A DNA stretch of 64,000 bases from CBDBIG01 sp965205845 [NCBI: bacterium] (GTDB taxonomy: Bacteria; SAR324): positions 310,001 to 374,000 of the forward strand of contig CBDBIG010000003.1 in NCBI GenBank assembly GCA_965205845.1. Direction: 5' to 3'. Numbering within the stretch: position 1 is the first letter of the stretch; the number at the start of each line of letters is the position of its first letter. The notes beneath the pieces are model-generated. The model did not search any database, was not told where the DNA came from, and was given only the letters and a program-made list of their open reading frames with translations. Shown here piece by piece: positions 1 through 64,000 of this stretch. Made by a program: the position numbers and the translations under genes.

Positions 1-864
1 GACATTGGTGCTAGCAAGGCGCTGCTGGCTTAAACCCAAACCCAGCAAACTGGTGGGGAACTCGGTGATCCAGTCGAAACGAACGCTCCCCTCAACGCCT
101 TCCAAAATGCGGACACTAGGGGCGCTATCGCGTTGGGAAACACGAGGCTGGGCTTGCGCGGTGGGCACACGCAAAGCGATTTGCCAATTGAGGTGGGTCC
201 GCGGATAGCCAATGGGAAAATGCGCAATGACCATTTGGCTCACCAAACTGGGACCCGCTTTTTGCACCTGCAATTGGTGCTGATAGCGGTAGGGTTCTTG
301 TTTTTTAACTGGAAAAGCAAGGCCTATTTGCCAATCCCAAATGAGTTCGTCATCGAAATGCAGCCTAAGCACGCGCTCAAGCATTCCTTGGCTTAACGCA
401 TCAAGGCTTTGGGTTTGCAGGCTTGGCACAATATGAAGCGCCGCTGGGCTGGCACTTGCATGGGGACTCACACTGCCCGTTTGGCGCGCACTTTCGACAT
501 CAAGGCTAAACCCCCATGCCCGCCTTGGAGCATCGCCATAACGCATCTGCAAACGCGTCAAGCTGCGGGTGCGCGAAACTGTGCCCTGGAGTTCGCCCGC
601 CACGGAGTTAGGGTTTTGCGCCAAATAATTGAGCAAAGTACCCTTTTCACCATGGCGATTCACACCACCGGTTTGGCGCTCAAGTACATAGCGAGTCTGA
701 ACACTCCATACCCCAGCGGGCGGCATGGTTTCTGTGCCCCACAGTATTTGTGGTGTTAGCAACAGCCCGCCATACAGCACAATCCACAAAAGGGCCTTAC
801 CCCCCACGGTTGAACGCCATTTCTGCCAAACCTTGCTGCTGAGTTTCGCCGTGCTTTTATGCAC
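1..864 (-). CDS. Exported, probably outer-membrane protein (3' end beyond the window)
   Basis: An uninterrupted reading frame runs on the minus strand from a GTG at 864 past the left edge; 288 codons are visible. After a basic start there is a hydrophobic stretch (ALLWIVLYGGLLL) followed by a plausible signal-peptidase region, so the product is probably exported. The remainder alternates polar and hydrophobic residues and is rich in W/Y/Q, as in beta-barrel or beta-sandwich envelope proteins. I recognise no family. The GTG is the first plausible start downstream of the maf stop, which lies 42 bp upstream on the same strand, so cotranscription with maf is likely. The real start could be another rare codon, because no clear ribosome binding site is visible. 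Confidence 0.6.
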   Translation of the reverse strand, partial: MHKSTAKLSSKVWQKWRSTVGGKALLWIVLYGGLLLTPQILWGTETMPPAGVWSVQTRYVLERQTGGVNRHGEKGTLLNYLAQNPNSVAGELQGTVSRTRSLTRLQMRYGDAPRRAWGFSLDVESARQTGSVSPHASASPAALHIVPSLQTQSLDALSQGMLERVLRLHFDDELIWDWQIGLAFPVKKQEPYRYQHQLQVQKAGPSLVSQMVIAHFPIGYPRTHLNWQIALRVPTAQAQPRVSQRDSAPSVRILEGVEGSVRFDWITEFPTSLLGLGLSQQRLASTNV

Positions 865-905
865 AGGCAGGGTGTGGAAAAGCCATACCCTTTGTTTGCT
901 CTGTA

Positions 906-1526
906 TCACAGGGAAATCCATCCTTTTTGCCACAAACCCCAAAACATATGCTCGATGGGAAAACCGATTACATTCGAATAGGAACCCTCCAGCGATTCCA
1001 GCAACAAACCACCCCAACCTTGCACTTCGTAGGCCCCTGCTTTACCCATGGGTTCACCACTTTGCGCGTACCATGCCAGCCATTTAGGGTCTGCTTGCCT
1101 AAAACGTACTTTGGTTTCCACCTGTGCTTCCTCATACACACCGCTTGGGGCATGTAGTAGGCAGTATCCCGTAATTACCCAATGGGTTTTGCCGCATAAA
1201 GACGTGAGCATAGCATGCGCATCGACGGCATGTTTTGGCTTGCCATACACGCTATTGCCAAAGGCAACCACGGTATCGCCCGCCAAAATAAGGTGCGTGG
1301 GGTGCGTGGGAGCAGCAGCATTTGCTTTAAGACGCGCCAAGCGTGCGGTTAAAGTTTGGGGGGATTCCTTTGCCATGGCGTGCTCATCCACCATAGGGGC
1401 AAACACGCTTGCTTGTAAACCAAAGCGTTCCAGCAGCATTTTGCGCCTTGGCGAAGAAGAAGCCAGGCAAAAGGGTAGGTTTTGCTTAATGGGTGCGTTT
1501 TGCGCAAAAAGGGGAGAGGACGTCAC
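906..1526 (-). CDS. maf: Maf family nucleoside triphosphate pyrophosphatase
   Basis: The 206-aa product matches the Maf family, which hydrolyses non-canonical or pyrimidine NTPs to the monophosphate in the cytoplasm and is linked to septum control. The N-terminal signature LASSSPRRK lies at about residues 21-29, the conserved DEHA at 47-50 and LAGDTVV with the catalytic Asp at about 81-87, followed by GKP. Start is GTG at 1526; the product carries about 20 residues before the signature, longer than usual, and no better internal start is visible. It lies between mrdA (upstream) and the exported-protein gene (downstream) on the same strand. The exact substrate subgroup (dTTP/UTP or m7GTP) cannot be read with confidence. 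Confidence 0.9.
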   Translation of the reverse strand: MTSSPLFAQNAPIKQNLPFCLASSSPRRKMLLERFGLQASVFAPMVDEHAMAKESPQTLTARLARLKANAAAPTHPTHLILAGDTVVAFGNSVYGKPKHAVDAHAMLTSLCGKTHWVITGYCLLHAPSGVYEEAQVETKVRFRQADPKWLAWYAQSGEPMGKAGAYEVQGWGGLLLESLEGSYSNVIGFPIEHMFWGLWQKGWISL

Positions 1527-1696
1527 TTGCTAAAGATCTGCTAAATGGAATGTGTTTTCTAAAAAATGGACAACGATGGGGCCGTTTGCACCCTCATTTG
1601 CGTCTCCCGTTTGGGTGCTTTTCGCAAGTTTACCTTGATAACCGCCTGAGGCGACGTTTTTTTAACCGCAGCCCAAGCCAAACACCCCCTGATACC

Positions 1697-5342: not shown

Positions 5343-5486
5343 AGCAATATTTTATCCTGATGCTCTCGGTATCGACCACGCTCCTCCAAAAGGCTGATGA
5401 TGAGTGCCCGCGGGAGGTCTTTACCGTTTTAACCCCTTACCGCTTGCATCTTACCCGCCTCCTTTGTGTAATAAACACTGCGGTTG

Positions 5487-5635
5487 CGCTCCCGATCTTT
5501 TTTGCCAGTGGCAAAGCATGGAGACGGGGACACCCGTTTGCGCTGCCGATCTTTTTTGCCAGTGGCAAAGCATGGAGACGGGGACACCCGTTATTTCCAT
5601 GTGGTCGCATAAGCATGGGGACGGGGACAACGGGC
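5487..5635 (+). repeat. 54-bp direct repeat (2 copies plus a partial third)
   Basis: Copies start at 5487 and 5541 and are nearly identical; a shortened third copy of the GCATGGRGACGGGGACA core lies at about 5613-5635. Each full unit contains the inverted repeat TTTGCC-AGT-GGCAAA and the motif GACGGGGACACCCG, which resembles GGGGAC-type repeats often seen near REP-associated Y1 transposases. No such transposase is visible here. The repeat sits between trpB and the deacetylase homologue and keeps a reading frame open upstream of it, but probably is not coding. Confidence 0.75.
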
Positions 5636-5760: not shown

Positions 5761-6795
5761 ATGCTAAGAAAAATGATGCGCGTTTTTTATCATCCAAGCG
5801 AGCAGCACTACCGCCCATCGCGCACCTGGTTTCATGGACGCATCGAGCCCAATCCCGAGGTTGTTGCGCGCACCCAAAGCATTTTAAATGCACTGGAACA
5901 ACACCCCAATTTTGCGTTTGAAGAACCCCCTAACCTTGATCCCACAAAAGACCTGCCTTTACTGGCAGAGGTGCACGATGAAGGCTACCTAAACACCTTA
6001 AAAACGGTGTGCGAGAGGCTGGACCCAGAGGAAGAGTTCTTTCCTTTTATGGCACGCCCCGACAAGGCCTTGTTGAAGGTGGCCTACCCCCGTGTGCGCA
6101 TGGGCTATTATGCGGTCGATGGTTCCATGCCCTTATTAACCCGCTCTTTTACCACAGCCTTAGGAGCAGCCGCCAGCGCTTTGGCGGGTGCCAAGGCAGT
6201 GTTATCGGGTGAAAAAGCCGTATACAGTTTGTGCCGTCCCCCGGGGCATCATGCCAGCAGGGCATCGTACAGTGGGTATTGTCTGCTAAACAATGCCGCG
6301 TTGGCCGCGCAGCGTTTGTCTAAGCAGGGCAAAACCGCCATCCTCGACGTTGATTTTCATCATGGTAACGGAGTACAGGAAATTTTTTACGCACGTGAGG
6401 ATGTGCTGTACGCCTCCTTACATGGTGATCCACGCCAAGCTTACCCTTTTATTTTGGGCGATAAAACCGAAACGGGAAACGGGGCAGGCTTGGGTTGCAA
6501 CCATAATTTTCCCCTACCCAAAGGCTGCAATTGGTCTTTGTATGCTCCCGCCTTAGAGGATGCCCTTGAGCGAATTGCCGCGTTTTCTCCCGACTTTCTA
6601 GTGGTAGGCCTTGGCTTTGATACCTATGCCAAAGATCCCATTGGTTTTTTTAAACTTGAGGTGTTGGATTTCGCTGCCATTGGAGCAAGGCTGGCGCAAC
6701 TCCAATGCCCCACCTTGGTGGTCCAAGAGGGGGGCTATTGTGCACCTGAATTGGGGGATTTGGCGGTGGCTTTTTTTAGGGGCTTCGGGCATTAA
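5761..6795 (+). CDS. Histone deacetylase-like amidohydrolase (HDAC/AcuC/APAH superfamily)
   Basis: The 344-aa zinc-dependent deacetylase belongs to the arginase/deacetylase fold; bacterial members remove acetyl or other acyl groups from polyamines, small amides or lysines. Visible are the tandem His motif GHHA after CRPP, the zinc-ligand motif DVDFHHGNG, the second Asp ligand in GFDTYAKDP, and QEGGY near the C-terminus. The frame extends upstream to 5404 through the 54-bp repeat, but the conserved part begins at ATG 5761, which follows AAGGGGG closely, so I place the start there. The substrate is unknown. Its last codons are duplicated just downstream. Confidence 0.88.
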   Translation: MLRKMMRVFYHPSEQHYRPSRTWFHGRIEPNPEVVARTQSILNALEQHPNFAFEEPPNLDPTKDLPLLAEVHDEGYLNTLKTVCERLDPEEEFFPFMARPDKALLKVAYPRVRMGYYAVDGSMPLLTRSFTTALGAAASALAGAKAVLSGEKAVYSLCRPPGHHASRASYSGYCLLNNAALAAQRLSKQGKTAILDVDFHHGNGVQEIFYAREDVLYASLHGDPRQAYPFILGDKTETGNGAGLGCNHNFPLPKGCNWSLYAPALEDALERIAAFSPDFLVVGLGFDTYAKDPIGFFKLEVLDFAAIGARLAQLQCPTLVVQEGGYCAPELGDLAVAFFRGFGH

Positions 6796-6862
6796 GGGGT
6801 TTGGATTTGGGGGGATTTAGCGATGGCTTTTTTTAGGGGCTTCGGGCAAGGGGTTTGGATTT
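6753..6862 (+). repeat. 57-bp tandem duplication of the deacetylase gene's 3' end
   Basis: The segment from 6753, encoding GDLAVAFFRGFGH and the stop, is repeated from about 6810 as GDLAMAFFRGFGQ followed by the same GGGGTTTGGATTT. The second copy lacks the few bases holding the stop. A third, decayed GGATTTGGGGGG start follows. The second copy lies after the stop codon and is presumably untranslated. Confidence 0.85.
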
Positions 6863-7298
6863 GGGGGGGGTGGAGGCTTATTTTGGCTGCCCTTGGCACC
6901 CAACCTGATGCACTTTGCGTTCTTGATGGCTGGTTTTGCGCTCTTGGCAATGGGGGGGCCGCCATAGGCTTGGTTTTTTTTTTAGATGCCCCGCACGCAC
7001 ATAGAAGGCGGGCTTGCATCCCCAAGTTTTGATAGAACTTTTGCTGGCGGGTCCCCAGCACAAAGTGCCATGCTTTTATAAGCCTCATCTTGCGTGCTAA
7101 TCGGCCTTTTAGTAGGGGTCTACGCCCGTTCTGTGCCAATTCTGCGCCAATTGCTATAAGCCAATGCCTTGTGCCAACTCCAACCCCACGTTACACGCAA
7201 AACAACCTGGGGCTGCCATACCTTTGCCCTCGCACTTTGGTTTTGTGGGCATTTGCTGGCAATTATGGGCTTTGCTAAAGTGCGACGTTGTGTTAGAA
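6863..7298. other. Gene-poor spacer before the CcmB-like gene
   Basis: About 430 bp with G-rich stretches (including an 8-G run near 6865) and short low-complexity T runs. Reading frames crossing it show no recognisable protein and no ribosome binding sites. I see nothing else that I can support. Confidence 0.5.
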
Positions 7299-11778: not shown

Positions 11779-11946
11779 GCACCACCATGCCCCATTTGCC
11801 AATAAGTATCTTGCTTTCAACGGCTTTTACGCACGCACCACCATGCCCCATTTGCCAATAAGTATCTTGCTTTCAACGGCTTTTACGCACGCACCACCAT
11901 GCCCCATTTGCCAATAAGTATCTTGCTTTCAACGGCTTTTACGCAT
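11779..11946 (-). repeat. 56-bp tandem repeat, 3 copies, between the paralogous outer-membrane genes
   Basis: Three almost identical units start at 11779, 11835 and 11891. They lie between the stop of paralogue B and the start of paralogue A, so they are in the 5' region of A. The unit shows no resemblance to either coding sequence that I can see. There are no spacers, so it is not CRISPR. The remainder of 11642-11982 holds no supportable gene. Confidence 0.95.
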
Positions 11947-11982
11947 GCACTCGCAGAACACACCCGCACCCTTAAAAGGTGT

Positions 11983-14559: not shown

Positions 14560-15276
14560 TTAGCGGGTGCCGTCTATTTCGAGGGGTTTAATTAGGGTGT
14601 CATCCAAGCGTTGTGCGTGGTGCTCGTCTTGCGGGGCTGCATCATCCTCCCCAACTTCCTCGTTGTCATCCAAGCGTTGTGCGTGGTGCTCGTCTTGCGG
14701 GGCTGCATCATCCTCCCCAACTTCCTCGTGACTAAAGAGCCCATCTTGGGGCAGTTCTGGGATATCTAAAGCCTCAAGGGTGGGGAGTTCTTTTAAGGTG
14801 CTAATGCCAAACAGGCTAAAAAATTTACCTGCCACCCCGTATAGCAAAGGGCGTCCGGGGCCTTCATCGCGCCCTGTGATGCGTACCAGGCGTTTTTCTA
14901 ACAAGCCACGCAAACCGTTTGAAGAATCGACTCCACGTAAATGCTCTACTTCTGCGCGGCTGACGGGCTGACGGTAGGCAATGATGGATAAAATTTCCAA
15001 CGCCGCAGGGGAAAGTTTGGTGGGTTTGTAACGGCTCAGCTGGCTTAGCCATGGTTTAAACATGGGCAGTGTGCGCATTTGGTAGGCTTCGCCCACTTTG
15101 GCAATATGAAACGCGTGCTCGGCCGTGCTGTATTGTTGGTTTAGGGTTTTAACCATGGAAGCAATACGTAAAGTACCATGCGGTTTAAGCAGGCGGTTTA
15201 ATGCATGGCTCGAAACAGGGTCGGCGCTGGAAAACAAAACCGCCTCCAAGACCCTCTTTGCATCGTTGTCTTCCAT
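14560..15276 (-). CDS. scpB: Segregation and condensation protein B
   Basis: The 238-aa kleisin-associated subunit of the SMC-ScpAB condensin contains two winged-helix domains. Recognisable are EAVLFSSADPVS at the start, LSPAALEILSIIAYRQPVSRAEVEHLRGVDS in the centre and the RDEGPGRPLLYG turn. The family usually ends soon after; here an acidic tail follows in which a 22-residue unit (EVGEDDAAPQDEHHAQRLDD plus two residues) occurs twice because of a 66-bp in-frame duplication. scpA is not adjacent. An FxsA-family gene lies 132 bp upstream on the same strand. Confidence 0.92.
   Translation of the reverse strand: MEDNDAKRVLEAVLFSSADPVSSHALNRLLKPHGTLRIASMVKTLNQQYSTAEHAFHIAKVGEAYQMRTLPMFKPWLSQLSRYKPTKLSPAALEILSIIAYRQPVSRAEVEHLRGVDSSNGLRGLLEKRLVRITGRDEGPGRPLLYGVAGKFFSLFGISTLKELPTLEALDIPELPQDGLFSHEEVGEDDAAPQDEHHAQRLDDNEEVGEDDAAPQDEHHAQRLDDTLIKPLEIDGTR
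14599..14730 (-). repeat. 66-bp in-frame direct repeat inside scpB
   Basis: Two copies begin near 14599 and 14665. The unit is 22 codons long, so the frame is kept and the acidic C-terminal tail is simply lengthened. The copies look identical over almost their whole length, which points to a recent duplication. Confidence 0.95.
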
Positions 15277-15858: not shown

Positions 15859-15862
15859 AACC

Positions 15863-19131: not shown

Positions 19132-19243
19132 TGTGTGCTGTGATGCCCATAGGTGGCAAGGCAAGCAAAAGTGCCCCTTTGTGCGGGTGTGTGCTGTGAT
19201 GCCCATAGGTGGCAGGGCAAGCAAAAGTGCCTCTTGCCCATGG
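19132..19243 (+). repeat. 56-bp direct repeat, 2 copies, upstream of leuB
   Basis: Units start at 19132 and 19188 and differ at only a few positions (for example GGCAAGGC against GGCAGGGC). They lie between the MBL hydrolase stop and the leuB start and show no coding content. The array ends about 40 bp before leuB. Confidence 0.92.
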
Positions 19244-21319: not shown

Positions 21320-22856
21320 TCGATTGAAAATAAGCCCATGGTTTTTGACGGCGTATGTGCTCGCCTGTCTGGCACCGCCCGCTTTAGCACAACGCAATTT
21401 TAAACCCCTTGAGCAAGGGGATGGCGTTGATGTTGAAGAAAAAATCGTCCTTTTGCGCGGTGTCGAGGCGCGGGCAGAGTTTGCCGCATGGTTGGAGCAA
21501 ATGCGCTCGAGCGATCTAAAGCTTGAATTGGGGCACGCTTCAGGAAGCCGTTCCAAGCAAGATACCCTACTCTTTTTTAGAACGGTAAGGCACCAAAATA
21601 TTTCGGTTAATTTGGAAGTCCAATTGGGTGATACCGCCTTTCAACCTACTGAATGGCGCCGCCAAGAAGACCCCAGCAGTGCAGCACGTGCGCCGCAGTC
21701 GAACCCATTAACCCTAAGCGTACGCCAGGCGCACATTGCCTACCGCTTTAATCCACGCTCACGCCTGCGAATAGGCAAGCAGTATGTTTCTTTCGACGAG
21801 GGGCGGGGCAAAATCTTTCACGGTTTTTTTCCAGCGATCCAATTTGATTGCTTTGTGAAGACCTGGTGCTTTCCCATCAAAGTGGCGTATATCGGCCCAT
21901 CATCTGCCGATGCGGCCTACCAGTTTGCCTTGCGCTATCCCGCTTGGGATGAGGGTGAGGGCCTTGAGCGCCGCCGTTTTCAGGTAGAATTGTTCCGGAC
22001 ACGCTACACAGAAAACAATGTCCCTTTGGCGGTAGGTTTTGGGGCAGGACGTTCTAACCCAAGCGATCAAGACGACCTCACCCAAAATCCCACCTTGGTA
22101 AATGATGGCGCAGGAACGGTGTTTTTTGATACCAACGGTGTCGACATATACGGGCTACGCTTTTGGTGGGATACGTCATGGCTAAACTTGTATTTGGATA
22201 CCATTTCCTCAAACGGCGCACGGGTGTACCATCGGCGCAAATTACCAACGGGGGACTTTGTAAGCTCTTTAAATGGCGGGGCAGAAACCAATCGCCAACA
22301 AGTAAGGGGCAATGCCAGTGAGCTAGAGGTCTCGATTTCCGTGCAAAAAAACTTGCGCTTTGGTTTGCGTGTGATGCGCGCAGATGGCGACCCAAATCGC
22401 AGCAATGCAGGGCAAGGCGTGTACGCCCGCAGTTTAGAGGGGTATTATGAGATTACCCCGGGGGGCTACACGGGCAGCAGGCTTTATTTTAATGGCAGCG
22501 GTGGCGAAGCCCTTAACAAAGGCCTTGGCTTGGGGCATTCCATCACCAATACCTCCATGGATAGCGTGTTGTTTTATTGGAAACAAGCGCAAAATTTGGG
22601 TCTTTCTTTTGACATCGCAATCCATCGCTTGGCTTACAAGCACCCTGTACGCAACGCCCAAGGGGCTTTCACCACCGATATTGGGAGAGAATTGAATGTC
22701 TTGATGCAAAAGCCCTTGAGTGAGGACTTAAATTTGGAATGGGAATTCAATTATATTTCTGCTGCCAGTGGGTTTTCCTTAACCGACCACCGACCACCCG
22801 TGGCCAGTCCCGATGACCTGTCCCAGGCTATTATGCGCCTTCACTATCGTTTTTAG
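21306..22856 (+). CDS. Alginate-export-like outer-membrane porin
   Basis: The 516-aa exported barrel protein has a signal peptide (hydrophobic residues about 12-26, cleavage near ALAQR) and a long strand-rich body. IAYRFNPRSRLRIGKQYVSFDEGRG resembles the alginate-export/phosphate-selective porin-like families, where a strand with RIGRQ is typical, and the C-terminus ends in LHYRF, a classical final barrel strand with terminal Phe. Two Cys in FDCFVKTWCF may pair. It overlaps the Nudix gene by 14 bp. The substrate is unknown. Confidence 0.75.
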   Translation: MKTLNRLKISPWFLTAYVLACLAPPALAQRNFKPLEQGDGVDVEEKIVLLRGVEARAEFAAWLEQMRSSDLKLELGHASGSRSKQDTLLFFRTVRHQNISVNLEVQLGDTAFQPTEWRRQEDPSSAARAPQSNPLTLSVRQAHIAYRFNPRSRLRIGKQYVSFDEGRGKIFHGFFPAIQFDCFVKTWCFPIKVAYIGPSSADAAYQFALRYPAWDEGEGLERRRFQVELFRTRYTENNVPLAVGFGAGRSNPSDQDDLTQNPTLVNDGAGTVFFDTNGVDIYGLRFWWDTSWLNLYLDTISSNGARVYHRRKLPTGDFVSSLNGGAETNRQQVRGNASELEVSISVQKNLRFGLRVMRADGDPNRSNAGQGVYARSLEGYYEITPGGYTGSRLYFNGSGGEALNKGLGLGHSITNTSMDSVLFYWKQAQNLGLSFDIAIHRLAYKHPVRNAQGAFTTDIGRELNVLMQKPLSEDLNLEWEFNYISAASGFSLTDHRPPVASPDDLSQAIMRLHYRF

Positions 22857-22871
22857 AGATCGTTTTTAGAG
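22846..22871 (+). repeat. 13-bp tandem duplication at the porin stop codon
   Basis: ATCGTTTTTAGAG occurs twice in direct succession (22846-22858 and 22859-22871). It covers the last codons and stop of the porin gene. This is a very small example of the gene-end duplication seen elsewhere in the window. Confidence 0.85.
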
Positions 22872-26520: not shown

Positions 26521-26790
26521 CCTACTGATTGCTTGGCCTTAAAGCGATGAGGGGCACATTAGGGCAAAACAACACGCTCTTTGGTTTTTCTTTAAAAGGC
26601 GGCTAAAGGGCACGTTTGGGTGGGTACGTGTCGCCAAGCGATTTGGCGGATTGCTTGTTCCTTTCGCCCCTTGCCCCCGTTTACCGGGGGTTGCTTGGCT
26701 CGTACTTTTTGATGAGGCTATTTATCAGCATATGTGCAAGCTTTTGGCTGTGATACAAGGCCTTATGTAACCAACCACTTCCGCCCAAGA
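26521..26790. other. Intergenic region after atpE, with one strong hairpin
   Basis: No gene is visible where atpF would be expected. An inverted repeat CCCCCG-TTTAC-CGGGGG (26674-26679 and 26685-26690) could form a stable hairpin about 155 bp past atpE. It lacks a U-run directly after it, so termination is only a possibility. Confidence 0.4.
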
Positions 26791-26974
26791 GCGATCTCAT
26801 TCAATCCCGTCGCGTTGTGTTCGCCCGTAGCCGATCAAAAACCCTTGTGAAAGCGATCTCATTCAATCCCGTCGCGTTGTGTTCGCCCGTAGCCGATCAA
26901 AAACCCTTGTGAAAGCGATCTCATTCAATCCCATCGCGTTGTGTTCGCCCGTAGCCGATCAAAAACCCTTGTGA
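26789..26974 (+). repeat. 62-bp tandem repeat, 3 copies
   Basis: Units start near 26789, 26851 and 26913 and are almost identical (CCCGTCGCG against CCCATCGCG in the last). They lie in the gene-free stretch between atpE and ffh and do not resemble either gene. No spacers are present. Confidence 0.95.
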
Positions 26975-27592: not shown

Positions 27593-27700
27593 TTTCAAAC
27601 ACAGGTTCAAACACAGGTTCAAACACAGGTTCAAACACAGGTTCAAACACAGGTTCAAACACAGGTTCAAACACAGGTTCAAACACAGGTTCAAACACAG
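27593..27700 (+). repeat. 12-bp minisatellite, 9 copies
   Basis: The unit TTCAAACACAGG is repeated nine times without interruption. Because 12 is a multiple of three, the minus strand reads as EPVF repeated in one frame and CLNL in another, giving a long but probably meaningless open frame at 27342-27893. Confidence 0.95.
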
Positions 27701-38825: not shown

Positions 38826-39710
38826 ATGGTGACACCCCCCCCTTGCCTTACCAACGCAGATACACCCCAAAAAACGCGTCAACTGCTGGGTGAGCGGCTG
38901 CAAACGTTTGTACCCAGGCCCCCACCCTATCCGCTGATTATGGGCATTATCAACGTCACCCCAAACTCGTTTAGCGATGGTGGCGACCTACCCCAGCTCG
39001 AGGATGTGCTCCGTCGGGCAGGCACCTTAAAGGGCGAAGGGGCAGATATTTTAGATGTAGGTGGGGCGTCCTCACATCCCAATGCCCCCCATACCCCAAT
39101 TAAAGTGGAATTACAGCGCGTTGTGCCCGTGGTGAAAACCCTACACCAGCAAGGATTGGGACCTATTTCAATCGATACCCAACACCCTGCTGTCGCGCAG
39201 CAATGCCTGCACGCAGGGGCGCACCTAATCAACGATGTAAGCGGCCTTTGCACCACCCAAACCCCCAACGCTGATATGGCCGCGATCGCTGCTCAATTTG
39301 GAGCGCCGCTGGTGATCACCTGCAACCATTTGAACCAACCCCCTCCCCCCAACACGCCTTTGTTAGAAGGGATGCTCCATTTTTTTAAGCAGCGCATTAC
39401 CGCCGCCAAAAAGCACGGGGCGACCCAACTTATTTTGGATCCTGGGTATGGTTTTGGCAAAAGCCTGCCCCAAAACTTGCAAACTTTGCGCGAACTTTCA
39501 AGTTTAATCCCTTTGGGTTACCCTATTTTAACCTGCACTTCGCGCAAAGGTTCCCTTGGCAAGTTAAGCGCAGAACCCAAACCAAAGGAACGCCTAGGTG
39601 CCGGTTTGGCAAGTGCATTCTTTGCGCTGAAACAAGGGGCTAGCATTGTGCGTACCCATGATGTAAAACCCTTGCACCAGTTCGTTCATCTATGGCACAC
39701 TTTGCGGTGA
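38826..39710 (+). CDS. folP: Dihydropteroate synthase-like protein
   Basis: The 294-aa TIM-barrel protein matches dihydropteroate synthase of the folate pathway: MGIINVTPNSFSDGG, SIDTQHPAVA, INDVSG, LDPGYGFGKS, TSRKGSLG and the final RTHDV. The loop that is normally DxGGESTRPG, which holds the pterin pyrophosphate, reads DVGGASSHPNA, so the usual Glu and Arg are replaced by Ala and His. This may lower activity or change the substrate. The frame is open from 38769; ATG 38826 is a good start. folK and glmM are not adjacent. Its 3' end is part of a duplicated junction. Confidence 0.85.
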   Translation: MVTPPPCLTNADTPQKTRQLLGERLQTFVPRPPPYPLIMGIINVTPNSFSDGGDLPQLEDVLRRAGTLKGEGADILDVGGASSHPNAPHTPIKVELQRVVPVVKTLHQQGLGPISIDTQHPAVAQQCLHAGAHLINDVSGLCTTQTPNADMAAIAAQFGAPLVITCNHLNQPPPPNTPLLEGMLHFFKQRITAAKKHGATQLILDPGYGFGKSLPQNLQTLRELSSLIPLGYPILTCTSRKGSLGKLSAEPKPKERLGAGLASAFFALKQGASIVRTHDVKPLHQFVHLWHTLR

Positions 39711-40360
39711 CCCGCGCACAACATAGGCTAGGCAACACCTTATATAAATTTTTTTGTTTTTATGGCGTAAAAAAATTAAAGCATCGTTATTGCGCTTTTT
39801 GTATGTGATGTTTTGCGCAAGGCTTGGGCGTTGGCGGCTTGGCCACTGTACGCGCGTTTTCTCACATCATTTCAAAATACAGTCAATTAAGAAGCACGCA
39901 AGCCTGCTTGCCGCCGATATTTCCTTGCGCAAAACACGCCTTTTTACGGCAGCCGAAAAGCGTGAGGTAAAACGCTTGCAACAAGCAAAGGCGCGCGTTG
40001 TGCGGACCCATGATGCTAAAACCCTTGCACCAGTTCGTTCATCTATGGAACCCCTTACGATGACCCACGCACAATTTGGCTATGAGCAGGACCTTAAATG
40101 AACTTTTTTTGGTTTTTATGGCGTAAAGAAATCAAAGCCTCGTTATTGCGCTTTTTGTTTGTGATGTTTTGCGCAGGCTTGGGCGTTGGCGGTTTAGCCA
40201 CTGTACGCGCGTTTTCTCACACCATTCAAAATACGGTCAATCAAGAAGCACGCAGCCTGCTTGCCGCCGATATTTCCTTGCGCAAAACGCGCCCTTTTAC
40301 GGCAGCCGAAAAGCGTGAGGTAAAACGCTTGCAACAAGCAGGGGCGCGCGTTGTGCAAGG
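39654..40360 (+). repeat. About 352-bp tandem duplication spanning the folP end and the FtsX-type permease start
   Basis: Unit A (about 39654-40004) holds the last 57 bp of folP, the spacer and about 240 bp of the permease 5' end. Unit B (about 40005-40360) starts again with the folP end (ACCCATGATG.TAAAACCC) and runs into the intact permease. The copies differ by many substitutions and small indels, so the event is old. The join shows short homology (TTGTGC is common to both parents). Confidence 0.92.
39754..40097 (+). pseudogene. Truncated extra copy of the permease 5' end
   Basis: The sequence encodes FLWRKKIKASLLRFLYVMFCA and, after shifts, LLAADISLRKTRLFTAAEKREVKRLQQA, matching residues 6-79 of the adjacent permease. 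The start codon of the real gene is changed here and the reading is frameshifted near the GLGVGGLATVRA region. It then runs into the duplicated folP end. It is a by-product of the 352-bp duplication, not a functional gene. Confidence 0.85.
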
Positions 40361-42812: not shown

Positions 42813-45800
42813 TCACAGGGCATCTGCCAAGCCAACGGGTTGGTATTTCCATGAAACAAAGTGCCTTTGCAACGCAAAGTACACCCCAAGGCAAATGGGC
42901 AAACGGGCATCCCACCGATAAAAGGCATCGCCATAGGCTTGGAGCTGGGCTTTGTGCTCGTCGATTCTTTCTGCAATAAAGGCTTCCAGTTGCACACCTC
43001 GCAATTCATGGGTTTGTCCTTCCACTTTATAGTCTACAATCCAGCGAATTTTCTGATGTACAAAACTGCGATCAAGAATGCGTTTTTTGGGTTGATTGGA
43101 ACCGTTGGCAACCCACAAGGGCATTTCCGTAACTCCTGGACAACGCAATAGCCAGCGTCCATTTGCATCGGTTATCACGTTGTTTAAGGCGTGTTGTACC
43201 GTTTGCACCGCTTGGGTTAAATGGCCTAAATCGACCCCTTGGGCAAGCAAACGCGCCTTGATTTGAGCCTGCAACGCTGCAATTTTGGTGCTGTTCCAGC
43301 CCTGCAAACCATCGTTAGCCATTTGCATTAGCAAAGCATGGACTTCTTCCCCCACCAAGCGGTTGGTATGCCTGGCATGGTCAAAGTCATGGAAACCCAA
43401 GGCTTCTTTTACGCTCGCTTCTTCCTTTGCGCCTTGGGTTTGGGTCCATCTGTCATCCCAAGGGGGATCGGGTAAACCGGGAGGATAATCGACGCACTGC
43501 CACCCAAGGTTAAGGCGTTGAAGCATGCGGGGGGTGGCTTCTGCGGGTTGATCCGTTGTTTGGGCGGCAAAGGGGGGCTGCGTCTTGGCTTCATGTGTTG
43601 CGCTGAGGGAGTCTGGTACGCTGTTTTTAATGGCTTTTTCTTCGCCACCATCCCACAGGAAGCGTAGAAATGAGCCTTGTTCAGGCAGGTTTTTTCCTGG
43701 TCCTTGGGGTGCTGCAACCTTGAGTTCCCCGCCCAGCAAAATATGTTTTTTGGCACGGGTAACAGCCACATACAACAAGCGTAGGGCCTCGTTTGCCTGG
43801 CGTTGTTTGTCGCGTTGCGCCAACCATTCATATAAGCTGGGCTCTTTTTGAGCCGCTGCGTCATATGCGTTAGGACGCGGTGCCATGAACACCGCCTGTG
43901 CCAGGAGGTTTGGTGTGGGTTGCTTGTGCGCCAGGGAGTCACCCGGGGTGTCATCCATGCTCGTGTTAAGCGCACCTTTTTCCCAGCGCAGCACAGAGGT
44001 ATCGCTGTTCTTTACCCCAAAATGCAAACCAGGCAGCACCACCACATCAAATTCGGTCCCCTTGGCTTTGTGTATGCTCATTACCTGCACCTGTTGTAAA
44101 CTACTCGGCTGGTTGGGGGCATACACCTTGGCGAGGCGCGCCTCTAAGGCATAAGGCCAAGGGAGTTCTCCACCTTGTAGGGGTTTTTCAAGTTGAGCAA
44201 AGCAGGCTTGCACAGTGTGCAATGCTTGGGTTTGTATCGTGATATTAGGGTTTTGGAGTGTTGCGGGACCATTAAGAGCCAGCCAGCATCCTTCGACCCA
44301 ATCGCGCAGGGCAAGGCGCTCACGCAGGACGAAAGCCGCTTTAAATGCATGCAGCACGGGCTGAATACGTGCGCGGCCATCGAGGCTTAAGGTGGCCTGC
44401 ACTGCGGGGTTTTGCAGCCTTTCGTACACGCTTAACAGCGTTGTATCATGGCCGTTGTGGACAGATGGGCAGATTTGATGCAAATCGCTGAGGCACAAAC
44501 CACACCAAGGGGCACGCAACACAGCCATCCATGCAATGGCATCATCTGGTAGGTAAAGGGCATGTACCAAGCTTGAAATATCAAGGGCTTCTTGTTGCGT
44601 GCCCAAGGTTTCAAGGTCAACCCCCTGGTATGCTATCCTATGCAAACGCATGGCTTGCAAAAAGGGTTGTACGTGCTTTCGGGTACGAAACAACACAGCC
44701 ACACGGGGTGTTTGCTGGTGCAAGGTGGTGTCTTGCTGCATGCAACTTTGCAAGCGCATCGCCAATTGTTGCGCCCAATCAGGGGGCGCATGGCTCGGTG
44801 TAGCCTCTCGGTTTGGGGTGCATACATAGGCGATGCATGGCGTGTGCGGGTGGTTCCTTGGCGGGATACTGGTTTGTGGAGGCATGGCTTGGGCAAAGCG
44901 AATGGCACCCAACGCTGCATATTGTTTTGCGGGAGACATCTGCTCAAATATCCGATTTGTCCAGCGAATAAGGGCAGGGCTGGAGCGAAAATTGACTTGC
45001 AAGCGTAAAAACTGGGGTTTAACCTGGCCTAAGCCATGGTCAATCACATGTAAAAATACCGCCACCTCAGCGCCCCGAAAGCGATAAATGGCCTGCATGG
45101 GGTCGCCCACCAAAAATAAACTATTCTCCTGGCCGTCGTTAAAATGGCGGGTAAGCAAAGTGAGAAGTTGCAACTGGGTGTGGGAGGTATCTTGAAACTC
45201 ATCCACCAGCAAATGGTGCAAACCCGTTTTTCCAAAGGCGTGAAGAAAAGGTGCTTCATCCAGTACAAGCAAAGCATCTTGGGTAATTTGCAGGTAATCA
45301 ATGCCCCCTTCTTGCGCAAACAATGCTTGCAGGCATTGGTTGGCATGCCACGCCATGCGCATGATGGCTTGCAGCTCTTGCCCTTGTACTTTTGCAAAAG
45401 GTGGGGCGCAATAGTGTCTTACATCACTTAAGCCTGCAACCGCATGCGGCACAGCAGCCAATTGTTTGAGCAGAAGCTTCATTTCTCGTTTGGCTTGCTC
45501 GCCTGCGCCCCCCCCCATTTGTTTATTGAGGTAGCCGAGGTTTTTGTCGAGATTTTTTCGTACCCTACCTGCTTGGGTGAGTAAAAAAGCCGCCCAACTG
45601 CGCCATAGGCCAAGGCATTGTTGCAGCCCTTGGTAAAACTGGGTGGGTGTTTGAAAATCACTGTCCTTGGGTGTTTGAGGCCAGTTATCAACTTTGGCCA
45701 AAGCCGTTAAGAGCGATGGTTCATTCCCTTGTTCGGTTAAAATACGCACGGCCCGCTGTGCTTGCTGCGCAAAGGCTTGGCCCAGATGGGTTTGTTCCAA

Positions 45801-46613
45801 GGTTTGTTCCAAGGTCCCCAACGATTGCTGTAGCCAGTAAGCCCATGCTTGGTTGTGCTGTTGGAGCCACTCACGCCATGGTTGCGCGTTTGGCGTGTTT
45901 TTGGTGTTGCTGGCATGAGGGCTTAACATGCCAAGCCACTGATCGCGGGTTCTTAGCATATGGGCCAGCATGCTGGCTGCTTGCATGTACTGGTTGTCCA
46001 TGTAATCCAAAAAAGATCCCGCTGCTTGAGACAACGGACCCTCCTTTTCCAGCGCACTCAAAGCCTGCATGGCTGCGCGTTGATACAGCAATTCGGAATC
46101 ATCAAGTACCGTGTTGCTGCCGCTTGTTTTACGCTGAAAAGGGGCACTGCGTACAATGTGGGAGCACAGGGAATCGATGGTTTGAATGCGCAAGCGATGT
46201 GGCATTTCCAGCAGTTGCCAGTTTTTTTCTTGGTTGCGTGTATACGCTGCCAGGGCTAGTTGCTGGCGCCCTTGTTCTTGGGTACTAGGTTTGGCAGCGG
46301 CATCTTTGGAGTGGGATTGAGGCACCCCCTCTTGTAAAGCGTTCAATACACGCTGGCGCATTTCGGCAGCAGCTTTTTTGCTAAAGGTAATGGCCAGTAC
46401 GTGCTCTGGCTCTTCCACCTGTGCCAGCAATGCCAACACGCGCTGGATAAGAAGCTCGGTTTTACCCGAACCTGCTGGAGCTTGTACAATAAACGAGTGC
46501 TTGGTGCAGAGTGCTTGTTGGCGCAGCGCATCATCAGGAGAAGCCTGGGCTGGTATATCAGCAGTGCGCGAGTACGTCGTGTGTTGGGTGTCCTTGTTTT
46601 GCATATCGCTCAT
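42813..46613 (-). CDS. addA: Double-strand break repair helicase-nuclease AddA
   Basis: The 1266-aa UvrD-like helicase is the large subunit of AddAB, which resects DNA ends for RecA. Walker A QAPAGSGKTELL (about 44-55), ITFSKKAAAEMRQRV, the Walker B LLVDEFQDTSHTQLQLL, GDPMQAIYRFRGAE, SIHKAKGTEFDVVVLP and LLYVAVTRAKKHILL give the full SF1 set. Near the C-terminus RILDRSFVHQKIRWIVDYK is the RecB-type nuclease motif. ATG at 46613 overlaps the addB stop by 4 bp, so the subunits are translationally coupled. Length and style are those of alphaproteobacterial AddA. Confidence 0.95.
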   Translation of the reverse strand: MSDMQNKDTQHTTYSRTADIPAQASPDDALRQQALCTKHSFIVQAPAGSGKTELLIQRVLALLAQVEEPEHVLAITFSKKAAAEMRQRVLNALQEGVPQSHSKDAAAKPSTQEQGRQQLALAAYTRNQEKNWQLLEMPHRLRIQTIDSLCSHIVRSAPFQRKTSGSNTVLDDSELLYQRAAMQALSALEKEGPLSQAAGSFLDYMDNQYMQAASMLAHMLRTRDQWLGMLSPHASNTKNTPNAQPWREWLQQHNQAWAYWLQQSLGTLEQTLEQTHLGQAFAQQAQRAVRILTEQGNEPSLLTALAKVDNWPQTPKDSDFQTPTQFYQGLQQCLGLWRSWAAFLLTQAGRVRKNLDKNLGYLNKQMGGGAGEQAKREMKLLLKQLAAVPHAVAGLSDVRHYCAPPFAKVQGQELQAIMRMAWHANQCLQALFAQEGGIDYLQITQDALLVLDEAPFLHAFGKTGLHHLLVDEFQDTSHTQLQLLTLLTRHFNDGQENSLFLVGDPMQAIYRFRGAEVAVFLHVIDHGLGQVKPQFLRLQVNFRSSPALIRWTNRIFEQMSPAKQYAALGAIRFAQAMPPQTSIPPRNHPHTPCIAYVCTPNREATPSHAPPDWAQQLAMRLQSCMQQDTTLHQQTPRVAVLFRTRKHVQPFLQAMRLHRIAYQGVDLETLGTQQEALDISSLVHALYLPDDAIAWMAVLRAPWCGLCLSDLHQICPSVHNGHDTTLLSVYERLQNPAVQATLSLDGRARIQPVLHAFKAAFVLRERLALRDWVEGCWLALNGPATLQNPNITIQTQALHTVQACFAQLEKPLQGGELPWPYALEARLAKVYAPNQPSSLQQVQVMSIHKAKGTEFDVVVLPGLHFGVKNSDTSVLRWEKGALNTSMDDTPGDSLAHKQPTPNLLAQAVFMAPRPNAYDAAAQKEPSLYEWLAQRDKQRQANEALRLLYVAVTRAKKHILLGGELKVAAPQGPGKNLPEQGSFLRFLWDGGEEKAIKNSVPDSLSATHEAKTQPPFAAQTTDQPAEATPRMLQRLNLGWQCVDYPPGLPDPPWDDRWTQTQGAKEEASVKEALGFHDFDHARHTNRLVGEEVHALLMQMANDGLQGWNSTKIAALQAQIKARLLAQGVDLGHLTQAVQTVQHALNNVITDANGRWLLRCPGVTEMPLWVANGSNQPKKRILDRSFVHQKIRWIVDYKVEGQTHELRGVQLEAFIAERIDEHKAQLQAYGDAFYRWDARLPICLGVYFALQRHFVSWKYQPVGLADAL

Positions 46614-49600
46614 TTTAAAAAAATGCCTTCTTGGGTATTTTCTGAGTCACCAAGATGGCTTTTTTTGGGTGTGCCCAGGGGGCCTTCTTTGGCTTTTATG
46701 CGGCAAAAAGCCGTAAAATCGCAATACTCGCAGGCGTCGTCTTGAGGATCGACCTGCGCTGCCCCTCGAGAAAATTGTTTCACGCTTTTTTCAAATGCCT
46801 GTTGCCAACGTGCCAACAGTGCTGGCTGTGTAGGCCATGGGTTTTTACCCCAGGTGCTTACTTTGTTGCCAAACAAACTGTCTTTGAATGTGACCTCACT
46901 CAAGCCAATCATCTCCATGCCTTTGCGGTGCAGTTTGGCAAAAGCAAGTGCCATCAGGGGTTTTTGCTGCTGCGCTGGCTGTTGTGCTTGTTTTTGGAGC
47001 CAGGCCAAGGCATAAAGGGGCAGTTGGGGTTGGGTAATGCGTTCCTCGTTCTGCCATGAATGAAGGGGCAGTGTTTCTCCCGTTTTATAGTCCAGCAACA
47101 CGGCAGCCTCAACCGCTTCTTGTGCATTCGATTCAAGGCTGCATTCTACGTAGTCCAAGCGGTCGAGACGTAGGCTTAAGGGCAAGCCAACCACGCTAAA
47201 GTCCAGTTTTTCCTCTTGCTTGCCTACACAAAAATCGCCCCTTTCCATGGCTTCTTTTTCCAACCATGCTGTGAGCAAACGGGTGATACGTTTGCCTTCC
47301 AAGCGTGCGGCGGCGGGAGAAAGCATCACGGTTTTTTTGCTTGCCTGTGCTTCGCTCGGTTTAGCTTGTGCTGCGGGGTCTGCGGGGTCTGCGGGGTCTG
47401 CGGGGTCTGCGGGGTCTGCGGGGTCTGCGGGGTCTGCGGGGTCTGCGGGGTCTGCGGGGTTGCTTACGCGAATAACACGCCCAATGGTGCGTTCCAAGGC
47501 TTGCTTAAAAGCCAAAGGTTTGGCAAGGAGGGCTCGTAATTCGCTTTGGCTTTGGGCCGCATCGTGCCAAAAAATTTCCAACACCCAGTGCACAATATTG
47601 CCTCGGGTCAGTGCGTCCAAACCTGTTTGCGCAAGGGTTTTTTTTTGGAGCATCAGGCGGTGCCTTGCAAAACTGCGAAAAGGGCAGAGCGCAATATCTT
47701 GGAGCAAACTTGCACCACCCTTTAGGGTAGACACATCAATGGGCGGCCCGTTGGAATCGGGGCATGACTGCCAAGGCGAATGGCTTTGGGCATGGTCCAA
47801 CATGGCCATCCATGCCGTGTGGGGGGGTGTCGGCATGGCACCTTTGGTGACGATAGGAGGGGGGGTGATGGTTTGCAGCAAGGAGCTGGGTCTGCGCTCC
47901 TCTTCGCTATCTAACTGCTGGGTTGCGTGGCTAATAACCACCTGCTTGGCGCTATGCAACAAGCGCGTCAGGCTCATTTTTCCCAGTGCAAGTTCACGGG
48001 CAGCACTTGAGCGTGGCATCTGATGGTCGCGTTGAAAAGCAAGGGGTAGCAAAGCATGCGGCATGGGCGGGGGAGGCCAGTGTTGATCATCAAAGCCCAA
48101 CACCCATAGGTGGTCAAAAAAGAGACCGCTAGCCTGCCATGGTCCTAAAATATGGAGGCTTGCTTCGAATCCCTCGGCTTGAAAGGGGGTTTCTGCAACG
48201 ATCCGTTGTAACCATGCAAACGCTTGGTTTGCAGACCATAGGTTCGTCGTTTGTGTATTTTGGATTCCATCGAGGGTGGAAAATACCTGCAACGCCTTTA
48301 AAAATCTCTTTTTTGCCTGTGCCTCGGTACTGTTAAGACCGCCCTCGGTTTGGCTCCCGTTTTTGGAAAAACCCAAGGTCCAACCCGCTGTGTGCAACAG
48401 GTTTAAAAAAAAATGCGCCCATTGCGAGGGCATTTTGTGCGTTGTTTGGGCCAATTGCCACGCATTTTTCCAAGCTTGCATTGGTTGGCACCATGTCTGC
48501 AGTTCTACCCCCGAACGTTGCGCTTGTTGCAGCACATGGCGCACTGAAAACGGCTCAACCCAGGTGGCCAAAAAACGATGCGCAAACCGTGCACGCGGAA
48601 TGCGTTCGGCGGTGGCACCCACAATAAATGGGCTTGTAACCCACTGCACAAAATGCTTGGCACTGCGTGCAACCAAAGGGGATTGCAACAAGAGCAAGGC
48701 CGCTTGGACCAACCCTTGCTCGCTGAGTGGTGGTGCATAGGAAAGGTTAAAGGGCTTGGCTGCACCTGCCTCGGTTGCATGGGTAATCAGGGTTTTGATG
48801 GGGGATAAATACTGTGTACAGACCGTGTGCACCCGTTGCCATTCTTCTTGCAGATTGGGGTGGATAATCGCAATTTTTTGCTTTGGGTTTTTTTGGGATA
48901 AGTCACGTGCCCAAAGCAGTGCTCCCTCTAATTCCTTTTGCGAGTTTGAATACGGATGCACGGTAGGAGGGTTTGCCAACGGCGGTGGTGCTTGCCTTTG
49001 GGGTTGTGGCTCGGCTTGGGCGCGGGGTAGGGCAAGCCAAGTGCTAGCTGGCACGTTCACGGGGACCCACTCCACCACCACTTGTAGAGTACGCAATGCA
49101 TCAAACAACCGCTCTTGCTGCGGGGTCAAGACATCAAACCCGCAGAGCACCATGTTGGTGGGCAACATAAACCCAAAGCCTTGGGTACTACCTTGTTCTC
49201 CAAGGTAATGTTCCCTTTCCAAAGCATGCACCACCAAACTGGCTACCTGTTCTTGACTACACCACCCTTGGGTATGCATTGCTTGCCCAAAAGCCAATGC
49301 CCAATTGACAAAAACCTTGGCTTCCAATTGCAACGTATGGGCAAAGGCTTCCTTTGCATGGGGCTGTAAAAACGCTCCTATGGTGGTATTCCAGCCCACA
49401 ACATGCCACTCGCATAGCAAACCCCATGCTTGCTGTGCCAAGGCAGCGGCTTTGGCTGGTGTTAAGGGCTTATGAGTCGTCGTTGGGTTATGCAGGGGTG
49501 TTGTGCGGGAATTACGTGTATTGGCAACGTTCCATCCGCAACGTGCAATTACTTGCTCCCACATAAGCCGTTCTTGCCACATATCCAAGGGCCATGGGGC

Positions 49601-49961: not shown

Positions 49962-50188
49962 GCACAAAGCCAAACGCACCTTGATTCTCGCGCTCAAGGA
50001 TTTTCTTTTCTGCATGCCAGCGTCCAAGTTTTATCCCATTTTTCCCTGCGCTGCTTCCTTGTGCACAAAGCCAAACGCACCTTGATTCTCGCGCTCAGGG
50101 ATTTTCTTTTCTGCATGCCAGCGTCCAAATTTTGTCCCATTTTTCCCTGCTTCGGGTTCCTTGTGCACAAAGCCAAACAAGGGTGCAA
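49962..50188 (-). repeat. 101/102-bp repeat at the 3' end of thyX, 2 copies plus a partial
   Basis: Units start at 49962 and 50063, and the first 15 bases occur again at 50165. The 50063 unit is inside thyX and adds about 34 residues (from FVHKE to the next FVHKE). The 49962 unit is read only briefly, then a stop appears in a shifted frame at 50031. Confidence 0.93.
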
Positions 50189-62221: not shown

Positions 62222-62295
62222 AAGCAAAACCTGTGCTAGCCCTAAAAAAGGGGATTGTATTCATAGTGTGTTTTTTAAAATCCTGCCCTTGAGCA

Positions 62296-63987
62296 TTACA
62301 GGTCAAGCACCGTTTGGGTCATTTCATTCACCGTGTTTAAAAACTTTGCAGAAGCCTCAAAACCCCGTTGATGCTGCACCATGGCGGCCAACTCCTCATC
62401 GGTATTCACCCCCGAAACCTCGTTACGCAGTTTTTGAAACTGGTCGACGATTAAGCGGTGGTTTTCTGCCTCTTGTTGTACGCGATCAATCTCTAAGCCA
62501 AGGTCAATCAAACTGCCATTGTAGTATTCATCCAAGGTGCTGGTTTGCTGGTTTAGCAGGTTCGAAAACTGGAGTTGATGAATTCCCAAAGCGACAGAAT
62601 TGTCCCCTGGCTTAAGGCGTTGGCCCGTGGTAACCTGTTGGGGGTTGTTGACAATATCTGGGTTGAGGCTAAAATTTTTGGCCCCTCCGCTGCTGTGAAA
62701 AAAACCATTTAGCCCCAAAGCCACGCTAAAATCGCTTTCATCGGGTCCCAGCACAAAATGCTCCCCGGGGGCTGCTTGCAACTGCACCCGCCCTTGGGAA
62801 TCAATCTCGGCCATTAGGTGGCCACCTGCCAGTTGGTTAATCCGGGTTACCACATCTTCGACGCTGTCTTTGCCCGCGTGTACGGGAATTTCGAGGGTAT
62901 TGCGGATGGTTTCGCCATCGGGGCTGGTAAATTGGACGCGAAACATGCCATCACGCAAAAAGGGAGCGGGGTTATCCTGCCATAAATGTCCCATCTCTGC
63001 TGCCCCTTGCAGGCTTTCAAAACGATGGAGCAGGCCCGTGCCTGGGTTGTGCAAACGGTTTACCTCATACATTAGGGTGTCCGCCAGGGTGTTGAGTTCA
63101 TCGAGCGCTTTGGAAGCCGTTTTATCACGCACCTCCACCATGTGGTGCAATGCGCCGCTTTTAAGCGTATAGGTTAAATTGTGTGGCGGGCCAGAGGATT
63201 GCAGCCCGTGAATTTGCATGCTGGCTGCGCTTTTAAATTCTGCGGGTGCAAGATGCAGCCTTGATGATACCCCGCCGTTAACCAGAGGAAATCCGTTGCC
63301 AATGCTTACATTGAGCATCTTTTTATTATCCTCGACCCATTTCACCTCCACAATGCGGGAAAGTTCTTTGAGGGCTTTTTCGCGCGCATCGCGCAGATCG
63401 TTGGCCTCACCACGCAACCGATCTACCCGTGAAATTTGCCTGTTGAGTTCGGCAATTTTGTTCGCCTTTTGGTTGACCTCATGAATGCTTTGGCTTAAGC
63501 GTTCATTAAAATCTCCGCGCAAGGTTTCAATGCTGTTGTGCAAACCGCCCATGCGCTCTGCCAAAGCCTCGCCTTTTTGCAACACATCGCGCCGATGAAT
63601 TTCTTGCTCGGGGTTGTTGGCCAAACCCGACCACGAACCCCAAAATGCGTTTAAAGCCTCGCGCAGGCCATTGCCCTCAATCTCGGCAAACAAGCTTTCC
63701 AAAGCACGCAAGCCTTGTTGGCGTACCCCAAGGCCAGCATCGGTTGATTGCTCTGCAATCAGCCGTTTGTTCACAAAATTGTCGCGTACCTGGGCTACCC
63801 GCTCCACATCCACCCCGCCACCTAACAAATTGCGGGTAGGGTGCTTGGCGGCGTATTCCACCCTTTGGCGTGAGTAGTTTTCATCTTCCGCATTGGCGAT
63901 GTTATGCCCAGCCGTTTGCATGCCCGACTGCTGCACTTGCATGGCGCGTGCGCCAAGGCTTAGCTGAGAAAACAATGAACTCGTCAT
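62296..63987 (-). CDS. flgK: Flagellar hook-associated protein 1 (FlgK)
   Basis: The 563-aa first junction protein has the rod/hook N-terminal signature QVQQSGMQTAGHNIANAEDENYSRQRVEY, a coiled-coil-rich N-terminal third with LNRQISRVDRLRGEANDLRDAREKALKELS, and the C-terminal VNTDEELAAMVQHQRGFEASAKFLNTVNEMTQTVLDL. The start ATG 63987 lies 13 bp from the right edge, so the promoter is outside or earlier flagellar genes precede it. flgL follows. Confidence 0.96.
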   Translation of the reverse strand: MTSSLFSQLSLGARAMQVQQSGMQTAGHNIANAEDENYSRQRVEYAAKHPTRNLLGGGVDVERVAQVRDNFVNKRLIAEQSTDAGLGVRQQGLRALESLFAEIEGNGLREALNAFWGSWSGLANNPEQEIHRRDVLQKGEALAERMGGLHNSIETLRGDFNERLSQSIHEVNQKANKIAELNRQISRVDRLRGEANDLRDAREKALKELSRIVEVKWVEDNKKMLNVSIGNGFPLVNGGVSSRLHLAPAEFKSAASMQIHGLQSSGPPHNLTYTLKSGALHHMVEVRDKTASKALDELNTLADTLMYEVNRLHNPGTGLLHRFESLQGAAEMGHLWQDNPAPFLRDGMFRVQFTSPDGETIRNTLEIPVHAGKDSVEDVVTRINQLAGGHLMAEIDSQGRVQLQAAPGEHFVLGPDESDFSVALGLNGFFHSSGGAKNFSLNPDIVNNPQQVTTGQRLKPGDNSVALGIHQLQFSNLLNQQTSTLDEYYNGSLIDLGLEIDRVQQEAENHRLIVDQFQKLRNEVSGVNTDEELAAMVQHQRGFEASAKFLNTVNEMTQTVLDL

Positions 63988-64000
63988 AAGGGGCCACGGT

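What the first reader, a model, noticed from the sequence alone, without database searches (positions are those of the whole stretch)
1..64000. Recurrent local tandem duplications at gene boundaries
At least 18 places carry direct tandem repeats whose units (9, 12, 13, 24, 45, 54, 56, 57, 62, 66, 85, 87, 96, 101, 240 and about 352 bp) are copied from the DNA at that spot, not from one mobile element. Several include a gene's stop codon (24380, 35521, 6753, 50063, 58470, 22846), others a 5' end or upstream region (30579, 27761, 39654), and a few are in-frame inside genes. Copies range from identical to decayed, so the process is ongoing. An unusual replication or repair trait, such as loss of mismatch repair or slippage-prone re-replication near gene ends, is an inference.
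Basis: partly seen in the sequence, partly recalled or inferred. Interest (0 to 1): 0.8.

Follow-up and report, generated by a model that had tools for sequence, protein, structure and literature searches.

The report
Frequent local tandem duplications, selection-filtered
This stretch of an unplaced bacterium carries roughly ten times more short side-by-side DNA duplications than the bacterial sequences I compared it with; they sit at gene ends and between genes mainly because copies made inside genes are weeded out, and many of their joints do not show the flanking repeats that copying slips usually need.

Summary
The repeats are real: 19 families of local direct repeats, not alike among themselves. 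TRF gives 19 rows scoring 50 or more; 20 shuffles average 0.30. Arrays with units of 40 bp or more occur at 18.75 per 100 kb, against 1.67 in 957 kb of other bacteria and 1.29 in 155 kb of E. coli; all arrays make up 6% of the window.

Gene ends are not a target. With arrays collapsed, duplications are missing from gene interiors (expected 14.26, observed 3, all multiples of 3). Of the 16 others, 8 touch a gene end; 6.82 are expected (P=0.35). A duplication across a gene end leaves one intact gene, so selection suffices.

Mechanism, weaker: many junctions lack the homology that slippage needs. In 4 of 6 arrays a mismatch falls exactly on the array edge (expected 0.28, P=2e-5). Read by eye, 11 of 16 families are within one base of whole copies, against 3 of 15 controls; the control's own automatic rule gives 10 of 18 (P=0.07). 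This resembles end joining followed by copy-number expansion.

No genome is held for the window, so repair genes and genome-wide enrichment were untestable. The organism is unplaced.

The parts
5484..5592 (.). 54-bp unit x2, intergenic (or in-frame if the deacetylase gene starts at 5404)
6753..6868 (.). 57-bp unit x2, decayed, first copy holds the stop of the histone-deacetylase-like gene 5773-6795
11779..11950 (.). 56-bp unit x3, intergenic; the only mismatch is the last base of the last copy
14598..14729 (.). 66-bp unit x2, identical, in-frame inside scpB
19132..19235 (.). 56-bp spacing x2, 48 bp alike, decayed, intergenic
22846..22871 (.). 13-bp unit x2 over a stop codon
24386..24907 (.). 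87-bp unit x6; first copy holds the end and stop of the ATPase_gene1 (AtpZ-like) gene
26790..26975 (.). 62-bp unit x3, no flanking homology, intergenic
27198..27225 (.). 14-bp unit x2, last base differs, intergenic
27594..27701 (.). 12-bp unit x9, last base of last copy differs; intergenic, or in-frame in an ORF (27342-27893 -) without Pfam hit
27761..28239 (.). 240-bp unit x2, directly upstream of ffh (SRP54)
30579..30770 (.). 96-bp unit x2, identical, second copy reaches into the start of rimM
33679..34105 (.). 85/86-bp unit x5, intergenic
35521..35939 (.). 85-bp unit x5, first copy holds the stop of the Band-7 gene 34691-35542
39646..40356 (.). about 353-bp unit x2: 3' end of the pterin-binding-enzyme gene plus 5' end of the YbbP-like permease gene; the redundant halves carry frame-shifting indels
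45789..45812 (.). 12-bp unit x2 inside the UvrD-type helicase (AddA-like) gene
47371..47460 (.). 9-bp unit x10, in-frame (Asp-Pro-Ala repeats) in the PD-(D/E)XK nuclease (AddB-like) gene
49962..50178 (.). 101/102-bp unit x2 plus a 14-15-bp third piece, over the C-terminus of the Thy1 (ThyX) gene, in-frame spacing of 34 codons
58410..58516 (.). 56-bp spacing x2, decayed, reaching over the end of the class-II synthetase (EpmA-like) gene

Best explanation
The window records a high rate of small local tandem duplications (units mostly 54-102 bp) that can start anywhere. The first duplication is usually made without help of flanking homology: a likely route (inferred) is a break with staggered ends whose single-stranded tails are filled in, so both ends carry the same stretch, and which are then glued together, sometimes with one added base or at a few matching bases. 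Once two copies lie side by side, slippage or unequal recombination between them expands some to 3-10 copies. Selection then removes duplications inside genes unless they keep the reading frame, and tolerates those between genes or across a gene end, where one full gene remains. Shown: density, locality, absence from gene interiors, and no enrichment at gene ends beyond that. Supported but not proven: homology-independent origin. Inferred: end joining, and expansion between copies.
For: Density: 12 arrays with units of 40+ bp in 64 kb against 16 in 957 kb and 2 in 155 kb. Null. Selection sieve: inside genes 3 of 19 against 14.26 expected (no simulation of 500000 printed as so low; 0 of 300000), units 66, 9 and 12 all multiples of 3; ThyX copies 34 codons apart; gene-end share as expected. 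353-bp case: both genes keep an open frame while the redundant halves carry indels. Junctions: no flanking match at 66, 96, 62, 240, 13 and 9x10 (240 read by eye past indels); a mismatch exactly on the array edge in 4 of 6 arrays that have mismatches and no indels, 0.28 expected, P=2e-5, or P=0.001 for three. Random breakpoints give 0-1 matching bases in 83% of cases, as seen in 8 of 11 long-unit families by my reading. Expansion: neighbouring copies share variants, e.g. copies 4 and 5 of the 87-bp array are identical at all 7 variable sites.
Against: A minority has real homology: 6 bp (353), about 14 bp (101/102), 3 bp (12 in AddA-like) and 4 bp (56x3, if its edge mismatch is a substitution); 3 of 11 with 4+ bp is more than random breaks give (P=0.0014). 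The junction contrast with controls is modest: by eye 11 of 16 against 3 of 15 (P=0.011), but by the same automatic rule 10 of 18 against 3 of 15 (P=0.07), and two control arrays (L019, L071, one motif in one genome) show the same edge pattern. Three families (57, 56 at 19132, 56 at 58410) are too decayed to read. No repair gene could be looked for. Controls are not matched for relatedness or coding density and are partly fragmented assemblies, which may under-count arrays.
Confidence: 0.5

Rival explanations
1. Ordinary replication slippage or flap mis-processing between short flanking repeats, as in yeast lacking the flap nuclease Rad27, raised by a defect in Pol I flap cutting or mismatch repair.
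For: Unit sizes fit: Tishkoff's 5-108 bp duplications with 3-12 bp repeats, as quoted in PMC5677150 (passages), and most units here are 9-102 bp. Four families have 3-14 bp of flanking homology.
Against: Most readable junctions have 0-1 matching bases, as random breaks give. Edge mismatches are not expected from slippage.
Confidence: 0.25
2. A process aimed at gene ends, such as re-replication or breakage at terminators or transcription-replication clashes.
For: 8 of 19 families touch a gene end, 2.11 expected without conditioning (P=0.00024); more touch stops than starts.
Against: Given exclusion from gene interiors, 8 of 16 against 6.82 expected, P=0.35; P=0.52 and 0.15 in two variants. No junction motif (P=0.16-0.18). 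The test is small and could miss a modest preference.
Confidence: 0.1
3. Assembly artefact: repeats created or miscounted by the assembler.
For: Long arrays (6 x 87, 5 x 85) exceed short reads, so copy numbers may be wrong; PMC7343930 (passages) reports missing repeat units in short-read assemblies of a tandem-repeat-rich genome.
Against: Copies carry private substitutions and indels, units inside genes keep the frame, and redundant halves of the 353-bp copy are decayed where the functional ones are not.
Confidence: 0.07
4. Functional variable-number repeats kept by selection, for example to tune expression of neighbours.
For: Some lie next to starts (rimM, ffh) and could change expression.
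Against: Units are unrelated, sit beside diverse housekeeping genes, and have no shared motif or Rfam match.
Confidence: 0.05

Closest known systems
Ehrlichia ruminantium, a genome rich in tandem repeats of variable copy number
   Same: Many unrelated local tandem repeats, mostly in non-coding DNA, in a genome of low coding density (PMC7343930, passages; Collins 2005 only as a cited title, its text is not held).
   Different: About 29% G+C obligate intracellular pathogen; the window is about 51% G+C with flagellar-looking genes. Junctions of the Ehrlichia repeats were not seen here.
rad27-delta yeast duplications
   Same: Unit sizes up to about 100 bp (PMC5677150, passages).
   Different: Those are mediated by flanking repeats of 1-21 bp (3-12 bp earlier); most readable junctions here are 0-1 bp.
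Bacterial non-homologous end-joining scars (Streptomyces ambofaciens)
   Same: Mixture of 1-6 nt microhomology, single non-templated bases on blunt ends and fill-in; two scars held inserts of 42 or 83 bp from nearby DNA (PMC5869714, passages).
   Different: Scars of an induced break; not shown to make tandem arrays. Ku/LigD not testable here.
Tandem duplications from paired nicks in plants
   Same: Insertions over 80 nt that copy the adjacent sequence (PMC5103219, passages; PMC7464560, passages).
   Different: Eukaryotic, nuclease-induced; Schiml 2016 itself not read.

Membership tests
Minisatellite / VNTR-type tandem arrays | Head-to-tail copies of a unit of roughly 9-100+ bp, alike, beyond chance | tested here: met
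Minisatellite / VNTR-type tandem arrays | Copy number varies in the population | not testable with these tools
   no reads, no second strain; own genome not held
Dispersed repeat or mobile-element family (REP, MITE, IS) | The same unit recurs at separate loci | tested here: not met
   no cross-family or dispersed family in the self-comparison; no near match of 21-30 kb in plasmids or of 24-40.4 kb in phages
Slippage between flanking repeats (rad27-type) | Unit ends flanked by matching repeats of at least about 3 bp | tested here: inconclusive
   4 families have 3-14 bp; most readable ones 0-1; automatic rule versus controls P=0.07
End-joining duplication (staggered break, fill-in, joining) | Blunt junctions, added bases or short microhomology | tested here: inconclusive
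   edge mismatch in 4 of 6 arrays; the same pattern also in 2 of 15 control arrays
End-joining duplication (staggered break, fill-in, joining) | Genome encodes Ku and LigD or another joining pathway | not testable with these tools
Mismatch-repair loss | mutS/mutL absent or broken | not testable with these tools
Gene-end-targeted process | Excess at gene ends beyond selection against gene interiors | tested here: not met
   8 observed, 6.82 expected, P=0.35; variants

The most novel reading that the evidence does not exclude
A bacterial lineage in which staggered chromosome breaks (or opposed nicks some 50-100 bases apart) are routinely filled in and end-joined, so that homology-independent tandem duplication is a leading source of new intergenic DNA, new gene ends (as in the ThyX tail) and in-frame protein repeats.
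Probability: 0.2. Interest if true: 0.7.

Novelty: new variant of a known kind. Interest (0 to 1): 0.42.

Why it matters
Small tandem duplications in bacteria are usually put down to slippage between short repeats. A genome that makes many without such repeats would be a natural record of another route, and would let one test how much intergenic DNA and how many gene tails arise by duplication. It also shows why repeats at gene ends should be tested against survival: a duplication across a gene end spares the gene.

Tried and rejected
Gene-end targeting: rejected as unneeded. A first version failed to collapse the 353-bp family; one search replaces it and changes little. Shared nick motif at the array edges: none. 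Mobile or phage origin: no support. Rfam: only two tRNAs.

Finding relatives: the one genome-contig scan with Ffh gave 5 loci at 38-40% identity. TrpB in five of their genomes: 37-64%; Ffh in 19 genomes of one phylum: at best 41%. One viral scan with TrpB found nothing. Plasmid-borne homologues of HemL, AddA-like, TrpB, LipA and LeuB reach about 26-62% among the listed rows, with no consistent best taxon. The organism stays unplaced, so no orthologous pre-duplication site could be read.

Controls: I left out nine loci (L002, L003, L004, L010, L012-L016) that might overlap other fetched contigs. Gene calls are from my own simple caller, with six starts changed and two doubtful ORFs dropped by hand, two tRNAs added.

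Literature: nine answered searches (searches are the ten answered in all); I found no report of this window's trait in the listings, which is weak evidence as most subscription papers are not held.
Full report
Observation. TRF lists 21 rows. A lag scan recovers the long families and adds two decayed ones. On 20 dinucleotide shuffles TRF averages 0.30 rows at score 50 or more and none at 80, against 19 and 14 in the window. After merging I count 19 families. The three short two-copy ones (13, 14, 12 bp) are the weakest. A gapped self-comparison finds no family resembling another and no dispersed family; a few marginal single pairs slightly exceed the shuffles, among them two neighbouring paralogous genes.

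Density. With one TRF setting, score 80 or more, unit 9 or more and matches 80% or more, the window has 14 arrays (12 with units of 40+), 6.1% of its length; 957,122 bases from other bacteria have 34 (16), 0.6%; 155,001 bases of E. coli K-12 have 2 (2), 0.4%. That is an 11-fold excess for long units. Many of the control arrays have units that are multiples of 3. The controls are a convenience sample, partly fragmented assemblies, and not relatives of the window.

Position. My gene set covers 78.5% of the window, 81.5% after collapsing arrays. Of 19 families 3 lie wholly inside genes where 14.26 are expected; no simulated set was as low (and 0 of 300,000). The three are 66, 9 and 12 bp, all multiples of 3; the ThyX C-terminal copies are spaced 34 codons apart. 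Of the 16 others 8 touch a gene end; 6.82 are expected, P=0.35. Without the three short families it is 7 of 14 against 6.62 (P=0.52); counting a doubtful ORF (27342-27893) and a longer deacetylase start, 9 of 14 against 6.74 (P=0.15). So the gene-end pattern follows from removal of duplications inside genes. The logic is simple: a tandem duplication that overlaps a gene end leaves one complete gene. The 353-bp case shows it: it copies the end of one gene and the start of the next, both genes keep open frames, and the redundant halves carry indels (which copy changed is inferred from the open frames).

Junctions. A tandem duplication made at matching flanks leaves an array longer than whole copies by the length of the match. 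At 66, 96, 62, 240, 13 and 9x10 there is no such excess, at 54 one base (240 read by eye past indels). At 56x3, 87x6, 12x9 and 14 the lag run stops one base short of whole copies. Four of the six arrays that have mismatches but no indels have one exactly at the edge, 0.28 expected (P=2e-5); a base added or misread at the joint explains this better than chance substitutions. Clear homology occurs in a minority: 6 bp in the 353-bp family, about 14 bp in the 101/102-bp family, 3 bp in the 12-bp family of the AddA-like gene, and 4 bp in 56x3 if its edge mismatch is a substitution. The two 85-bp arrays end 2 and about 6 bases short and I read them as 0-1 with end decay, which is a judgement. Three families are unreadable. 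Random breakpoints would give 0-1 matching bases in 83% and 4 or more in 2% of cases; 8 of 11 and 3 of 11 long-unit families by my reading fit a mostly homology-free process with a homology-using minority.

Control on junctions. For the 15 control arrays with 95% or more matches, 3 are within one base of whole copies. By eye the window has 11 of 16 (P=0.011). The automatic rule used for the controls gives 10 of 18 in the window (353 unreadable), P=0.07. Two control arrays, with one shared motif, also show the one-base-short pattern.

Copy-number expansion. In the 87-bp array copies 4 and 5 are identical at all seven variable sites and copies 4-6 share further variants; in the 85-bp array at 33679 copies 4 and 5 share an extra base. 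This fits later exchange or slippage between copies.

Comparison. Ehrlichia ruminantium is the nearest known case of a bacterial genome full of local tandem repeats (PMC7343930, passages). The size range resembles rad27-delta yeast (PMC5677150, passages), but those events need flanking repeats. The mixture of blunt joints, one added base and short microhomology resembles end-joining scars in Streptomyces (PMC5869714, passages); LigD's polymerase domain can add non-templated bases (PMC8068969, passages). Paired nicks give adjacent-sequence insertions in plants (PMC5103219 and PMC7464560, passages).

Limits. No whole genome is held, no relative was found, and homologues on plasmids point to no one taxon. 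Gene names AtpZ, AddA, AddB, EpmA, FolP are my reading of Pfam matches, not separate tests; the YbbP NCBIfam match is below its cut-off (294.8 against 999 bits).

Noticed in passing
36541-37825: No intact gene; frames are broken, and a 131-aa ORF (36619-37014) contains a TSPPY-like motif that I recall from DNA methyltransferases; no Pfam hit. Probably a decayed gene.
   Followed up: partly
47371-47460 and 45789-45812: Both subunit genes of an AddAB-like break-repair helicase-nuclease carry in-frame short tandem repeats, ten Asp-Pro-Ala units in the AddB-like one.
   Followed up: partly
50031-51707: A 558-aa Thy1 (ThyX) protein, long for the family, with the tandem repeat forming its C-terminal tail.
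   Followed up: partly
10433-13239: Two neighbouring paralogous genes without NCBIfam hit, porin-like by eye; the DNA pair matches at 64%.
   Followed up: no
26520-28252: 1.7 kb between the ATP synthase subunit c gene and ffh holds four arrays (62x3, 14x2, 12x9, 240x2) and no gene with a family match that I found.
   Followed up: partly
whole window: Coding share of about 78% is low for a bacterium; two tRNA genes only (17169, 17504).
   Followed up: no
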